A DNA stretch of 15,612 nt, from contig JADGAE010000017.1 in NCBI GenBank assembly GCA_015232165.1, positions 1 through 15,612 on the forward strand. Reading direction: 5' to 3'. The notes beneath the pieces were generated by a model. It did no database searches. It had not been told where the DNA came from and saw only the letters and a list, made by a program, of their open reading frames with translations. The translations under genes were made by a program, and so were the position numbers. Shown here piece by piece: positions 298 through 8,597 of the stretch. Numbering within the stretch: position 1 is the stretch's first letter; every line of letters starts with the position of its first letter. Source of the stretch: Nitrospirota bacterium. Its GTDB lineage: Bacteria > Nitrospirota > Thermodesulfovibrionia > Thermodesulfovibrionales > Magnetobacteriaceae.

Positions 298-819
298 ATG
301 ATTGACATTACTATAGCCAGGATGACCCATGTGGAATGGGAGTATCAACTTGAATTGGCATTGCAAAAGAGAAATCTCGTAATTAACATGAGACCATACA
401 ATGAATGTGAGCTTGGCGTATGGCTATATAGCAAGGCATTAAAAATGTACCAGGAGATACCCGATATTGAATTACTGGAAAGAGAACACAAGTTATTCCA
501 TATTGCGGCAGAGAAGGTTGTCAAGTGGCATAATGCCCCCAAGATTAGCCCAAGATATGATGCGCAGGCTCAAATAGATTTTGAAGAGGTACGGCAAAAG
601 AGTAAAGAGATAATTTATCTTTTGACGATGCTCGAGTTTAAAATGTTGATAAAATACCAACATGAAAGCTCAGGTCAAGTGGTGGATTTTAAAGGTCTCA
701 TAAAGAACCCGTTAAAGACATTAAACAATATGATTAAAGGCAAGGGTAATATCCACAATGTATCACAGACCTCATTGGACATGTTAAAGGATGATCTGAC
801 AAGAAAGGGCCTGAAATGA
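298..819 (+). CDS. Free-standing CZB (chemoreceptor zinc-binding) domain protein
   Basis: The first ~75 residues match the CZB pattern: His11 in HVEW, Cys37 in the C-x-L-G-x-W-L motif, then His64 and His68 in EHKLFH, which together make the 3-His/1-Cys zinc site of this family. CZB domains are known at the ends of chemoreceptors and diguanylate cyclases, where the zinc-thiolate senses zinc or oxidants. Here there is no membrane segment, no methyl-accepting domain and no GGDEF domain. The remaining ~100 residues are mostly helical and charged and I do not recognise them. The start is set by a strong AGGAGGAG 10 bases upstream of ATG 298. The gene is visibly more AT-rich than its neighbours. 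It lies 82 bases ahead of the repeat-bearing glycosyltransferase, so a regulatory or sensory link to glycan synthesis is possible but is inference. Confidence 0.8.
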   Translation: MIDITIARMTHVEWEYQLELALQKRNLVINMRPYNECELGVWLYSKALKMYQEIPDIELLEREHKLFHIAAEKVVKWHNAPKISPRYDAQAQIDFEEVRQKSKEIIYLLTMLEFKMLIKYQHESSGQVVDFKGLIKNPLKTLNNMIKGKGNIHNVSQTSLDMLKDDLTRKGLK

Positions 820-901: not shown

Positions 902-3880
902 GTGAAGGTATTAAACTACGATAGGGTAATACGTGGTGTCGGAGGCAGAAAGGATGCCTACAAGAGGGCCCTTTTTGCCGCTCAATCCCCCGGTACGGTA
1001 ACCATACACAAGGCTAATCATAGGGATGAAACCCCAATCGTGTCAATAATCCTGCTGGATTGGGAATGTCGGGAACACTACAGCTCGCTGTACTGGCTCA
1101 ACCAACAGGATGTTCCGCGTAATCAGTACGAGCTTATATGGATCGAGCTGTATAACCAGGTAGTGCCGGAGGTGACGGCGCAGGTCGATTGGCATATAAC
1201 ATGCGGACAATCAGGCATGTATCACAAGCACCTGGGATACAACATAGGGGTACTCAATGCCCGCGGCGATATAGTGACCGTTTGTGACAGCGACGCCATC
1301 TTCCCACCTGACTTTATAAGCTCGATAACCGAGTCCTTTGAGTATGACGCCAATAAGGGCTGTCAACGCTCCCTGGTGCTGATGCACCACGAGATGAGGT
1401 CATCCTTTCTGTTTCCGGAGGGGCTCAAGGAGATCGAGGACGTAAAGAGCAAAAAATGGAAGTGGTGGCCGCTAAATCCCAATGCCGGGGCATGTATGTC
1501 CGTCAGAAAGTCCGACGCCATCCGCTATGGCGCCTTCGATGAGCACGACTCCTACAGGGGCTACCTCTGCGGTCCATACGAGTTGGGATGGCGGCTGATC
1601 AACGCGGGGATGCCGGAGGTCTGGTACGACCACACGGTGACGGCCCTGTGGCACTATGCACACCCGGACCCCGTGGGCGTAAACGGACTGAGGGCCTCCG
1701 TCAATATAATCTTCGAAAATACATATCCGCACGTAGACCTACATGCCATAAAGGCCGTAGAGGCCTTTTCCGCCGGTAAGATGCTGCCCTTGCAGGAAAA
1801 CCCCATAGTCTTTGACATGCGCATGAAAGACAGGGTCATTGGCACCACATTTGAGGAACGATACTCCGACCTGACAGGTCCCGAGGGGTTTCCACAGTGG
1901 CTGCTGTGGTACATGACGATAGAGCTGTTTATCTCCCTGTCGATGAAGGTCATCGTGGCCAACATACTAAAACCGGCAATGATAAAGACCCTGAAACTGC
2001 TGCTGGGTAAGAGGCTATATAAATTCATCAGGTCCCTGTTCTATGGAGATTATGAGGAGATCGATATCAATGCCATGCCCGAGATCATTGAGTCCTATCT
2101 GACATACAATATCATCGAATACAGGGGCGTTATCTATGGCATACCCATGTCCCTGGGCAACGTTGACTTTAAAAGCAAAAAGCAGCTCAACCGCAAGGAG
2201 ATCGTCAAGGGCACTAACACCGAGGATGTCAGGGGCAAGATCGAGGAGTCCGGGCGCTTTGACCCGGAGCTTGTCAACTCCGTGGAGGACTACAATATCA
2301 TCAAGTATGGCAAGATGTTTTATGCCCTGCCCATGTCCCTGGGACAGATCGACTTCACCAATGAGACACAAATTAATCGGGCGGAGATACTCAAAGGTAA
2401 CGGCTACGATGAGGTCTTTAGGCTCATCGAGGAGACCAATAACCTTGTCCCCGTCTATGTATGCCCCTGTGAGACATGGTACATAGTGAAGTACAGGCAT
2501 GTCTTTTACGCCATCCCCATGTTTATAGAAAAGACGGATGACAACTGTGACCTTAACTACGGCGATATACTAAAGACAAAGACGAATGAAGACCTGCTGC
2601 TGTTGCTGGAGCACAAGGAAGTCATAAAATGTGCCGACCTTGAACAATTAAAGGGGATAATTGACAATACCGGCGGTGCTCATCCTATTCTGATCTATAC
2701 GGTTGAGAGCTATAATGTTATTAAGTACAACAGGCTCTTCTACGTCGTGCCGACATCCATAGGCGAAATAGACTTCAGCGACGAAAAACAGCTCCAACAC
2801 ACCGATATCGTCAAGGTCGTCGAATACGAGGAGGCCTTGCGTATAGCCCGGGAAAGAAACGATCTCTTGCCGGCGCTACTGCGCACTTACAAGCACTACA
2901 ACGTCGTCAAGTACAAGAAAATAATATATGCCATCCCCTCCTCCCTTGGCAAGATCGACTTTACCAACGAAGCACAAATCAACGTTGAAGACATCCTCAG
3001 AGGCGCCACTATTGAAGAGGTAACGGCCCTCATCGAAGAGGTCTGCCGCCTTGTCCCGGAGCTGATCGACACGGTTGATAACTATAACGTGATCAAGTAC
3101 GACAACGTCTTCTATGGTCTGCCGGCATCCCTGGGCAAGATCGACTTCAATGACAAGACCCGGCTTGAGCACAACGATATAATCATTGGCACCAACCGGA
3201 AAGAGGTCTTATATCTAATCCGTGAAGCTATCCACATCGTCCCGCTTCTTTTATGCTCTTGCGGGCACTATAACATCGTCAAATATCGCGCCGGTTTCCA
3301 TGCCATACCAAAGTCTCTGCAACGGGCGGACTTCATCTACAAGTCCAAGGTCAACTATCACGACATCCTGCGGGAAAAAACCGAGGCAGAACTGCTAACG
3401 CTCCTTCAGCACAAGGACGTACTCCATGCACCATCCGATGAAGGCCTAAAGGCCATGATCGGAGAGATTGGCCGATTTCAACCGGTATTGGTAGATTCCC
3501 TTGCAGGTTATAACGTGGTCAAATATAAAAAGCTGTTCTATGGTCTGCCCAAATCCCTTGGAGACGTTGACTTCACCGATGAAACTCAGACAAACAACGA
3601 CAGGATCATCAAAAGCGCCCTCTACGACAAGGTCTTAAATGCCATCCAACAACGAGACGATGTCGCACCTGAACTTCTCTGTTCCTATGAAGACTATAAC
3701 ATCATCATGTACAAAAATGTCCTCTACGCCGTCCACAAATCACTCGGAGCAGTGGACTTCACGAAGAAATCCCAGATTAATCGCAAGGAAATCTTAAAGG
3801 CAAATACAAAAGAAGAGTTACTCTATTTGTTTGTAAAGAGCGTAAACAGACAGTGGCATTTAGATGAGTACCAGGATTGA
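902..3880 (+). CDS. Glycosyltransferase (GT2-like, GT-A fold) with nine C-terminal tandem repeats
   Basis: Residues ~44-290 look like a family-2 GT-A glycosyltransferase: a beta-strand PIVSIILL, the metal/nucleotide-sugar motif D129-S-D131 after a NIGVLNARGDIV stretch, and a GPYELGWRL motif with E227 where these enzymes carry acceptor-site acidic residues. A hydrophobic helix (~333-356) followed by a basic stretch suggests membrane association. Residues 393-992 are nine tandem units of ~62 residues, each with the core YNxxKY, then FYAxPxSLGxxDF, then a Q-N-x-x-x-I/L-stretch and an acidic helix; units 3 and 7 are longer (78 and 80). The start is a GTG with no clear Shine-Dalgarno, and I saw no in-frame ATG that suits better. 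At 992 residues it is far longer than a simple GT2 enzyme. It likely adds sugars to a surface glycan in the cytoplasm; the role of the repeats is unknown (scaffold, carbohydrate or protein binding). Confidence 0.85.
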   Translation: MKVLNYDRVIRGVGGRKDAYKRALFAAQSPGTVTIHKANHRDETPIVSIILLDWECREHYSSLYWLNQQDVPRNQYELIWIELYNQVVPEVTAQVDWHITCGQSGMYHKHLGYNIGVLNARGDIVTVCDSDAIFPPDFISSITESFEYDANKGCQRSLVLMHHEMRSSFLFPEGLKEIEDVKSKKWKWWPLNPNAGACMSVRKSDAIRYGAFDEHDSYRGYLCGPYELGWRLINAGMPEVWYDHTVTALWHYAHPDPVGVNGLRASVNIIFENTYPHVDLHAIKAVEAFSAGKMLPLQENPIVFDMRMKDRVIGTTFEERYSDLTGPEGFPQWLLWYMTIELFISLSMKVIVANILKPAMIKTLKLLLGKRLYKFIRSLFYGDYEEIDINAMPEIIESYLTYNIIEYRGVIYGIPMSLGNVDFKSKKQLNRKEIVKGTNTEDVRGKIEESGRFDPELVNSVEDYNIIKYGKMFYALPMSLGQIDFTNETQINRAEILKGNGYDEVFRLIEETNNLVPVYVCPCETWYIVKYRHVFYAIPMFIEKTDDNCDLNYGDILKTKTNEDLLLLLEHKEVIKCADLEQLKGIIDNTGGAHPILIYTVESYNVIKYNRLFYVVPTSIGEIDFSDEKQLQHTDIVKVVEYEEALRIARERNDLLPALLRTYKHYNVVKYKKIIYAIPSSLGKIDFTNEAQINVEDILRGATIEEVTALIEEVCRLVPELIDTVDNYNVIKYDNVFYGLPASLGKIDFNDKTRLEHNDIIIGTNRKEVLYLIREAIHIVPLLLCSCGHYNIVKYRAGFHAIPKSLQRADFIYKSKVNYHDILREKTEAELLTLLQHKDVLHAPSDEGLKAMIGEIGRFQPVLVDSLAGYNVVKYKKLFYGLPKSLGDVDFTDETQTNNDRIIKSALYDKVLNAIQQRDDVAPELLCSYEDYNIIMYKNVLYAVHKSLGAVDFTKKSQINRKEILKANTKEELLYLFVKSVNRQWHLDEYQD
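2078..3880 (+). repeat. Nine tandem ~186-bp coding repeats in the glycosyltransferase
   Basis: Units start at residues 393, 455, 517, 595, 657, 719, 781, 861 and 923 of the protein. Seven are on the 62-residue (186-bp) register, units 3 and 7 carry 16-18 extra residues at their end, and unit 9 runs into the C-terminus. DNA conservation is visible but diverged, so the array is old rather than a recent slippage product. Confidence 0.9.
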
Positions 3881-7634: not shown

Positions 7635-8597
7635 ATGAGAGATAAACCTCCTGCAGTGGACAGACCACTGACAGACGTAAAGAGATACTCTCTGAGTGCA
7701 AGAAGCAGCAAGGTAAACATCTGTCAACAGGGCAAGCCGTTTTCAAGAGGCGGCTCATTCAGAGATTTCCTTGACACGATGCCGGAGGTGTTGGCAGCGT
7801 CGGAGCTAAAAAAGGCCGCACGCGCCATTATCGAGGCCAGGGCGGCGGACAGACCCGTTATCCTGGGCATGGGTGCTCATCCAATAAAGGTCGGCCTCTC
7901 TCCGATCATTATAGACCTAATGAAAAAGGGGATCATCACGGCAATAGCAACAAGCGGGGCATCCATTGTCCATGACTTTGAGATGGCCTTTATGGGATGC
8001 ACCTCCGAGGACGTGGCCGGCGAGCTCTGTCATGGCACCTTTGGAATGGCTCTGGAGACTGGGATTATGCTTAACACGGCCATATCGGATGGCGTGCGGG
8101 GAGGGCTGGGCCTGGGCAGCGCCATCGGTGACTTCATCCTCAACGACAACAGGATCAAGGATGCCTCCGTAAGCATCTTTGCCGCGGCCGTTGACCTCAA
8201 CGTACCAATTACGGTGCACGTTGCCGTCGGCACGGATATACTGCACATGCACCCCGAAGCCAACGGCAGCGACATCGGAGAGGGCAGTATGCGCGACTTC
8301 AGAACACTCGCCTCCGTCATCACCACACTTGCCGGCGGGGTGTTTATCAACCTGGGGTCGGCCGTTATCATACCGGAGGTTTTTCTTAAGGCGCTGAATC
8401 TGGCAAGAAACATTGGCCACAGGGTAGAGGGCTTCACCACTATAAACATGGACTTTATACGACAATACAGGGCCGAGGTAAACGTGCTTAAAAGGCCGAC
8501 AGCCAATTCCGGTTCAGCCATAAGCCTCATCGGACATCACGAGGTCATGTTTCCGATGCTCTGTGCCATTGTCAGCGAAATGAAGGACGATTGTTAA
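7635..8597 (+). CDS. Conserved protein of unsettled function, deoxyhypusine-synthase-like flavour
   Basis: The 320-residue product is soluble and well conserved in style. Notable motifs are VKRYSLSARSSKV near the start, G78-M-G-A-H82-P-I-K85 with VGLSP, TSGASIVHDFE (H113, D114, E116) followed by TSEDV, GTDILHMHPEANG, GGVFINLGSAVIIPEVFLKA, and HRVEGFTTINMDFIRQYR. The TSGA-x-x-x-x-D pattern recalls the NAD-binding TAGG/STGA segment of deoxyhypusine-synthase-like proteins. I recall bacterial proteins with these motifs as uncharacterised, but this was not checked. It has its own promoter and ends 4 bases before argD, so it probably shares a transcript with argD and argF. An arginine/ornithine/polyamine-related role is inference from context only. 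It could also be an unrelated housekeeping enzyme. The Shine-Dalgarno is weak (purine-rich GAGAGAAAAGA). Confidence 0.8.
   Translation: MRDKPPAVDRPLTDVKRYSLSARSSKVNICQQGKPFSRGGSFRDFLDTMPEVLAASELKKAARAIIEARAADRPVILGMGAHPIKVGLSPIIIDLMKKGIITAIATSGASIVHDFEMAFMGCTSEDVAGELCHGTFGMALETGIMLNTAISDGVRGGLGLGSAIGDFILNDNRIKDASVSIFAAAVDLNVPITVHVAVGTDILHMHPEANGSDIGEGSMRDFRTLASVITTLAGGVFINLGSAVIIPEVFLKALNLARNIGHRVEGFTTINMDFIRQYRAEVNVLKRPTANSGSAISLIGHHEVMFPMLCAIVSEMKDDC

What the first reader, a model, noticed from the sequence alone, without database searches (positions are those of the whole stretch)
2078..3880. Glycosyltransferase carrying nine tandem 62-residue repeats
The C-terminal 600 residues of the 992-residue protein are nine copies of a unit with core YNxxKY, FYAxPxSLGxxDF and a trailing acidic helix. 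I cannot assign the unit to a named repeat family. An array this long on a GT-A enzyme suggests a binding or length-measuring scaffold for a glycan or a partner protein.
Basis: partly seen in the sequence, partly recalled or inferred. Interest (0 to 1): 0.7.

Follow-up and report, generated by a model that had tools for sequence, protein, structure and literature searches.

The report
Unnamed domain shared by polysaccharide-assembly enzymes
The nine repeats on this sugar-transferring enzyme belong to a small, probably self-folding protein domain for which the libraries searched have no family name, and which in several bacterial phyla is attached to many different enzymes, and sometimes to the exporter, of surface-polysaccharide gene clusters, so it may help assemble or space that machinery.

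Summary
In detail: a 992-aa GT-A glycosyltransferase carries nine units (residues 388-982; seven of 62-65 aa, two of 78 and 80 aa). Held-out units score 49-96 bits against at most 11.9 for shuffles. No Pfam, NCBIfam or PDB match to the unit is significant. AlphaFold2 gives a beta-beta-beta-short helix-beta-alpha fold (pLDDT 91 for a pair). 34 of 72 uncut unit-bearing ORFs show one unit only, so it is probably an autonomous domain.

The unit is not specific to this enzyme. Of 88 unit-bearing ORFs in fetched loci, 71 fall into eight partner groups: GT2/GT4, B12-radical SAM, methyltransferases, two sulfotransferase groups, Wzt (unit between the ABC and Wzt_C domains), SPASM radical SAM, acyltransferase. 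Unit-bearing genes cluster (six within 12 kb of a 5.06-Mb genome); Wzt-like genes lie in 16 of 54 loci. Orthologous arrays have 5, 9, 11 or 12 units; the middle varies.

Best reading: a tethering/spacer domain of polysaccharide-assembly complexes (0.42). Rivals: glycan binding, common-ligand binding. No result here shows what the unit binds. Seven answered paper searches listed no description.

The parts
902..3880 (+). 992-aa protein: GT-A glycosyltransferase, hydrophobic helix, nine-unit array
   Evidence: ORF; homologs P0003-P0009
1034..1891 (+). GT-A (GT2-like) domain, residues 45-330; invariant D129-S-D131 at 1286-1294
   Evidence: Pfam GT2 22.9 bits, cut-off 23.3; family alignment A4; profile hit to heparosan synthase B 2.7e-5
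1895..2044 (+). Long hydrophobic/amphipathic helix, residues 332-381, possible membrane attachment (inferred)
   Evidence: helix 332-381 in a low-confidence part of the model; Kyte-Doolittle 19-residue mean up to 1.74
2063..2248 (+). unit 1 (residues 388-449)
   Evidence: held-out 75.6 bits
2249..2434 (+). unit 2 (450-511), the least constrained unit (pN/pS 0.348)
   Evidence: held-out 95.8 bits
2435..2668 (+). unit 3 (512-589), 78 aa with insert
   Evidence: held-out 49.0 bits; model
2669..2854 (+). unit 4 (590-651), the type present in 3-4 copies in two orthologs
   Evidence: held-out 69.9 bits; unit mapping
2855..3040 (+). unit 5 (652-713)
   Evidence: held-out 88.1 bits; AlphaFold2 pair model
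3041..3226 (+). unit 6 (714-775)
   Evidence: held-out 82.7 bits; AlphaFold2 pair model
3227..3466 (+). unit 7 (776-855), 80 aa with insert
   Evidence: held-out 66.9 bits
3467..3652 (+). unit 8 (856-917), the most constrained unit (pN/pS 0.078)
   Evidence: held-out 73.1 bits
3653..3847 (+). unit 9 (918-982)
   Evidence: held-out 81.4 bits
4058..5356 (+). O-antigen ligase-family (Wzy_C) membrane protein, syntenic with the array gene
   Evidence: PF04932 61.8 bits; near the array gene also in L046, L037, L071
5496..6671 (+). GT4 glycosyltransferase, syntenic
   Evidence: PF00534 99.1 bits; L046, L037, L071
6677..7456 (+). GT2 glycosyltransferase without units
   Evidence: PF00535 77.8 bits; no unit

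Best explanation
The unit is an autonomous ~62-aa interaction domain (three-stranded meander, short helix, strand, helix) that tethers enzymes of surface-polysaccharide synthesis, modification and export into one assembly complex at the inner membrane. In the window, a GT-A enzyme, perhaps held at the membrane by the hydrophobic helix 332-381, carries nine such domains end to end. The terminal units kept in all five orthologs (1-2 and 7-9) would make specific contacts, while the middle units act as a spacer whose length changes by whole units between species. SHOWN: the unit, its array, its many partner enzymes, its clustering, its insertion in Wzt, the ABC exporter beside part of the clusters, kept ends with a variable middle. 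PREDICTED: the fold. INFERRED: membrane attachment, tethering, spacing, and that the contact is with protein rather than glycan.
For: 88 distinct unit-bearing ORFs form a GT2/GT4 group (27), B12-radical SAM (14), methyltransferase and related (9), two sulfotransferase groups (5+5), Wzt (5), SPASM radical SAM (4), acyltransferase (2) and 17 in pairs or singletons (Pfam, not every member scanned). In Wzt the unit lies between ABC_tran and Wzt_C; a database search with that piece found 8 proteins including the window genome's own (61 candidates scored). 24 of 27 genomes have two or more unit-bearing ORFs (ORFs counted by hand). Six lie within 11.8 kb of a 5.06-Mb chromosome, chance about 4e-13 under uniform placement. 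Wzt-like genes over 170 bits lie in 16 of 54 loci, 15 of 33 genomes or records; Wzm-like genes in 13 of them (six of these Wzt trained the profile, and those six have Wzt_C by Pfam). ORFs made mostly of units (L075_5866, L076_12136, L078_7715) and a two-unit ORF with a coiled-coil-like tail (L038_5055; below-cut-off matches to coiled-coil families) look like adaptors. The array middle has 0, 1, 3 or 4 copies of the unit-4 type while the end units are kept. Protein complexes, a coiled-coil spacer and a membrane-associated helix beside a polymerase-recruitment site are documented in the same pathway type (PMC11231755, PMC3482155; passages read).
Against: Units of different enzyme classes in one genome are no more alike (mean identity 0.252) than across genomes (0.247), so there is no genome-specific docking code. 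At the thresholds used, 3 of 27 genomes have only one unit-bearing ORF, so unit-to-unit pairing between proteins cannot be obligatory. 38 of 54 loci show no Wzt-like gene over 170 bits (many loci are short), and the window itself has no Wzt- or Wzm-like ORF among its 11 apart from the array gene, which matches the Wzt profile through its units. Unit 2, one of the kept end units, is the least constrained of the nine (pN/pS 0.348). Relative orientation of units is uncertain (pTM 0.61 for the pair, 0.25 for the whole protein).
Confidence: 0.42

Rival explanations
1. The unit is a carbohydrate-binding domain: each enzyme uses it to hold the growing lipid-linked polysaccharide, arrays giving avidity or processivity, and Wzt uses it next to its own glycan-recognition domain.
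For: The partner families with a recognisable role mostly make, modify or export glycans; the unit is aromatic-rich, with conserved N16, Y25 and D35 and mostly aromatic 15 and 20; it is adjacent to Wzt_C.
Against: No resemblance to a carbohydrate-binding family reached significance (the CBM_5_12 match, E 0.59 in 1 of 17 units, is chance level). Enzymes of one cluster should see the same glycan, yet their units are no more alike than units from other genomes. One carrier includes an APS kinase, which acts on a small molecule.
Confidence: 0.3
2. The unit binds an invariant ligand common to the pathway, such as the polyprenyl-pyrophosphate carrier, the membrane surface or one conserved protein, so its sequence does not follow each glycan.
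For: A conserved core across partners (P6 91%, N16 83%, Y25 79%, P28 82%, G32 89%, D35 87% of 187 units), without genome-specific similarity; the hydrophobic helix next to the array.
Against: The conserved positions may be purely structural; no coordinates were available to test exposure; six of the nine window units are net acidic, which does not suggest membrane binding.
Confidence: 0.18
3. The array is a passive expansion: one functional unit followed by neutral duplications.
For: Copy number varies (5, 9, 11, 12) among relatives; P0004 and P0005 hold 3-4 copies of one unit type; middle units are less constrained than units 1 and 7-9.
Against: All nine units show pN/pS 0.08-0.35; unit 8, far from the enzyme, is the most constrained. 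Long arrays also occur in Nitrospinota (12 units on a GT2, 16 on a SPASM radical SAM protein).
Confidence: 0.1

Closest known systems
WbdD/WbdA-type O-polysaccharide assembly complexes (coiled-coil ruler plus recruitment site)
   Same: Same pathway type (ABC-transporter-dependent export) at part of the clusters (16 of 54 loci); a non-catalytic extension on a glycan enzyme, a possible membrane helix, species-variable spacer length; one carrier is methyltransferase, unit and coiled-coil-like tail (L036_7927, weak Pfam matches), and L038_6064 looks alike by eye
   Different: The spacer here is a chain of predicted beta/alpha domains, not a coiled coil; the same domain is on many enzyme classes and on Wzt; no chain-length role has been shown
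Carbohydrate-binding modules of glycan exporters (Wzt_C, PF14524)
   Same: Small domain on the cytoplasmic exporter ATPase; in the same proteins the unit precedes Wzt_C
   Different: No sequence match to Wzt_C or another CBM at significance
GT2/GT-A glycosyltransferases (heparosan synthase B, PDB 8vh7, is the best profile hit among solved chains)
   Same: GT-A core with the invariant DSD motif
   Different: Nine-unit C-terminal array, for which no solved chain gives a significant match

Membership tests
GT2 / GT-A glycosyltransferase | significant match to the family profile | tested here: met
   Window protein 22.9 bits against a cut-off of 23.3 (marginal, not passed by itself), but relatives of the same group pass (32.4, 40.0, 31.7 bits) and the A4 profile hits solved glycosyltransferases
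GT2 / GT-A glycosyltransferase | metal-binding DxD motif (recalled) | tested here: met
   D129-S-D131 invariant in 10 of 10 aligned relatives
A named repeat or domain family (Pfam, NCBIfam) | profile match above the curated cut-off | tested here: not met
   The whole protein, the 600-aa array and, for Pfam only, 17 single units: no match to the unit near a cut-off
Fold of a solved structure | clear structural match of the unit | tested here: inconclusive
WbdD-type chain-length ruler | coiled coil between terminator and polymerase | tested here: not met
   The model of the window protein shows nine beta/alpha units and no long helix inside the array (moderate confidence there)
WbdD-type chain-length ruler | length sets glycan chain length | not testable with these tools
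   needs mutants and LPS analysis
Carbohydrate-binding module | sequence membership in a known CBM family of Pfam | tested here: not met
   Single units against Pfam: only CBM_5_12 at E 0.59 in 1 of 17
Carbohydrate-binding module | binds glycan | not testable with these tools
   needs binding assays

The most novel reading that the evidence does not exclude
The unit is a so far unnamed 'assembly-line address' domain: one family shared by polymerising, modifying and radical-SAM enzymes and, in some clusters, by the Wzt exporter of the same polysaccharide, which physically couples synthesis, decoration and export; long arrays on GTs and radical SAM enzymes are modular rulers lengthened or shortened one bead at a time.
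Probability: 0.3. Interest if true: 0.83.

Novelty: new variant of a known kind. Interest (0 to 1): 0.68.

Why it matters
How enzymes that build, decorate and export bacterial surface polysaccharides are held together is known for a few O-antigens, where coiled coils do the job. A single domain present on many enzyme classes and on an exporter would give a handle to recognise such assembly lines by sequence, to assign orphan sulfotransferases and (B12-)radical SAM enzymes to glycan modification, and to test a bead-by-bead length ruler. By their record titles it occurs in isolates, not only in metagenome bins (Azospirillum lipoferum 4B, Methylomonas sp. WSC-6, Methylomicrobium sp. wino1).

Tried and rejected
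Weak Pfam/NCBIfam matches inside the array (DUF2290 0.0012, B9T54_RS14040 family 0.0088) were rejected: below cut-off, covering part of one unit, and DUF2290 is absent from the single-unit Pfam scan (NCBIfam was not scanned with single units). A closed beta-propeller or obligate solenoid was rejected as the default because 40 of 88 ORFs show one unit (34 of the 72 not cut by a locus end; weak extra units may be missed) and a helix follows each sheet; the fold searches gave no clear relative, which shows neither novelty nor difference. Genome-specific homogenisation of units was looked for and not found (classes labelled by hand, 'other' treated as one class). A phage origin: no phage record matched one array query (one query only). 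A description in print: paper searches returned no paper; others listed papers, none describing the unit by title and abstract start. The unit may carry a name in libraries not available here (other InterPro members, CDD). The full-length model's GT part is unusable (pLDDT mostly below 50, nine-row alignment). In the ortholog mapping (ungapped) unit 10 of P0004 matched nothing well (0.24), probably because of an insertion; by position it corresponds to unit 7. The 88 ORFs come from loci fetched because they encode the unit; 23 of 111 were dropped as duplicates or fragments, 16 of the 88 are cut by a locus end, and not every group member was scanned with Pfam. The cut was E<=1e-4; some weaker carriers, such as the GT4 ORF L035_12911 (1.1e-4), fall just outside. 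The two Azospirillum loci came later and are not in the 88. Of 68 distinct members of the 88 scanned with Pfam, 17 had no partner assignment by my hand count; six of the 17 fall into a known group by masked BLAST. One of 28 pattern-scan stretches (L047) showed no unit in a kept ORF.

Full report
WHAT IS THERE. The ORF at 902-3880 encodes 992 aa. Residues 45-330 form a GT-A domain: Pfam GT2 is marginal (22.9 bits against 23.3), but relatives of the same group pass the cut-off, and a profile of ten such domains with an invariant DSD motif hits heparosan synthase B and another glycosyltransferase among solved structures (E 2.7e-5 and 5.8e-5). Residues 332-381 form a long hydrophobic helix. Residues 388-982 are nine units. 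Seven are 62-65 aa; units 3 and 7 are 78 and 80 aa through an insert before the last strand and helix. Statistics: offset 62 stands far above shuffles; each held-out unit scores 49.0-95.8 bits against at most 11.9 for 500 shuffles.

WHERE ELSE IT OCCURS. A degenerate DNA pattern scan of one genome per species gave 28 stretches, in Nitrospirota, Nitrospinota, Planctomycetota, Gamma-, Alpha- and Betaproteobacteria, Acidobacteria and KSB1 (27 of 28 confirmed by the unit model). It is patchy: 12 of 295 genomes of the window's phylum (E<=1e-5), 4 of 151 of the Methylomonas genome's family and 3 of 77 of the Nitrospinota genome's phylum, the last two at E<=1e-6. Two Azospirillum plasmid records and no phage record matched one array query.

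WHAT IT IS ATTACHED TO. After removing duplicates, 88 unit-bearing ORFs group by the rest of their sequence (units masked): GT2, some also GT4 (27, including one GT4-only member), B12-radical SAM (14), PF13578 methyltransferases and related (9, one being a PF04464 glycerophosphotransferase), two sulfotransferase groups (5 and 5), Wzt (5), SPASM radical SAM (4), acyltransferase 3 (2) and 17 in pairs or singletons (Pfam; about a quarter of those scanned had no Pfam partner). In Wzt the unit sits at about residues 251-325, between ABC_tran and Wzt_C; a search for that piece found 8 proteins including the window genome's own, all 8 with Wzt_C in the precomputed annotation. In Azospirillum lipoferum 4B a GT2 with two units stands next to an ORF with two units (one weak) and an APS kinase; A. 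ramasamyi has the same pair (APS kinase by Pfam in 4B, by record annotation in A. ramasamyi). ORFs made mostly of units and a two-unit ORF with a coiled-coil-like tail also occur.

CLUSTERING. In 24 of 27 genomes two or more ORFs carry units (hand count; the 27 were chosen for having the unit). On a 5.06-Mb chromosome six lie within 11.8 kb (chance about 4e-13 under uniform placement), on a 4.69-Mb one three within 7.3 kb (7e-6). A Nitrospira cluster (L035) has seven unit-bearing ORFs: SPASM radical SAM, two sulfotransferase-like (below cut-off), GT2, B12-radical SAM, acyltransferase and, marginally, GT4, next to a Wzt without a unit and a Wzm-like gene. Wzt-like genes over 170 bits lie in 16 of the 54 loci searched, from 15 of 33 genomes or records, 13 of them with a Wzm-like gene. 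Six of the sixteen trained the profile and have Wzt_C by Pfam; the others are Wzt-like by profile only, and the lower-scoring entries of that list are mostly unit-bearing ORFs that probably match through the unit. The window has no Wzt- or Wzm-like ORF besides the array gene's own match through its units; its array gene is followed by Wzy_C and GT4, as in three relatives, with a methyltransferase-like gene between in L046. A unit-bearing Wzt is on another contig of the same genome (L040).

HOW THE ARRAY EVOLVES. Orthologs have 9 (P0003), 11 (P0005), 12 (P0004) and 5 (P0006) units. Mapping them to the window's nine shows kept ends and a changing middle: P0006 units match 1, 2, 7, 8 and 9; P0005 has three and P0004 four copies closest to unit 4. 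Against L046, pN/pS is 0.10 for the GT domain and 0.22 for the array; units 8, 1, 7 and 9 are the most constrained (0.08-0.18), units 2-6 less (0.24-0.35), unit 2 least. Long arrays also occur on other proteins in Nitrospinota: 12 units on a GT2 (L072) and 16 on a SPASM radical SAM protein of 1504 aa (L075).

MECHANISM. The partners with a recognisable role mostly belong to surface-polysaccharide synthesis, modification or export. The best-supported reading is a tether/spacer domain of the assembly complex; protein complexes, a spacer and a membrane helix next to a polymerase-recruitment site are documented for O-polysaccharides of the ABC-dependent pathway (PMC11231755, PMC3482155; passages read). 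Against it, units in one genome show no common signature (0.252 against 0.247), and 3 of 27 genomes have a single unit-bearing ORF at the thresholds used, so simple unit-unit docking between proteins is not obligatory. Glycan binding is the main rival; a common invariant ligand is the third. No result here shows what the unit binds.

NOVELTY. Accessory interaction modules in polysaccharide assembly are a known kind; this domain and its spread over many enzyme classes and an exporter were not found in the libraries or among the papers listed by the seven answered searches. Hence 'new variant of a known kind'.

Noticed in passing
L075:6380-10894 (Nitrospinota): A 1504-aa radical SAM/SPASM protein with 16 copies of a ~70-aa subtype of the unit, preceded by a 145-aa ORF of two units.
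   Followed up: partly
L035:8560-12042, L049:3576-7082, L057:3920-7174, L084:4738-7860 and others: A ~1040-1170-aa B12-binding radical SAM protein with two or three spread-out units recurs in several phyla, often in polysaccharide clusters; its reaction is unknown.
   Followed up: no
L087:16414-19023 (Azospirillum lipoferum 4B plasmid): Fusion of an unassigned N-terminal part, two units (one weak) and an APS kinase, beside a unit-bearing GT2, near annotated sulfotransferases and a phosphocholine cytidylyltransferase.
   Followed up: partly
window 298-819: Small protein with a CZB (chemoreceptor zinc-binding) match right at the cut-off (29.5 against 29.4 bits) just upstream of the array gene; the same neighbour in L046 scores 28.7 bits.
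   Followed up: partly
window 7635-8597: GSU2086-family protein, distantly related to deoxyhypusine synthase (386.6 bits against a cut-off of 250), between glycan genes and genes that look like arginine biosynthesis by eye (not searched).
   Followed up: no
L038:5055-6071, L036:7927-9102, L038:6064-7872: Units followed by coiled-coil-like tails (weak Pfam matches in the first two, by eye in the third), on a methyltransferase or alone, reminiscent of WbdD-type rulers.
   Followed up: partly
P0016: A partial Wzt with the unit is labelled Chryseolinea (Bacteroidota), one more phylum.
   Followed up: no
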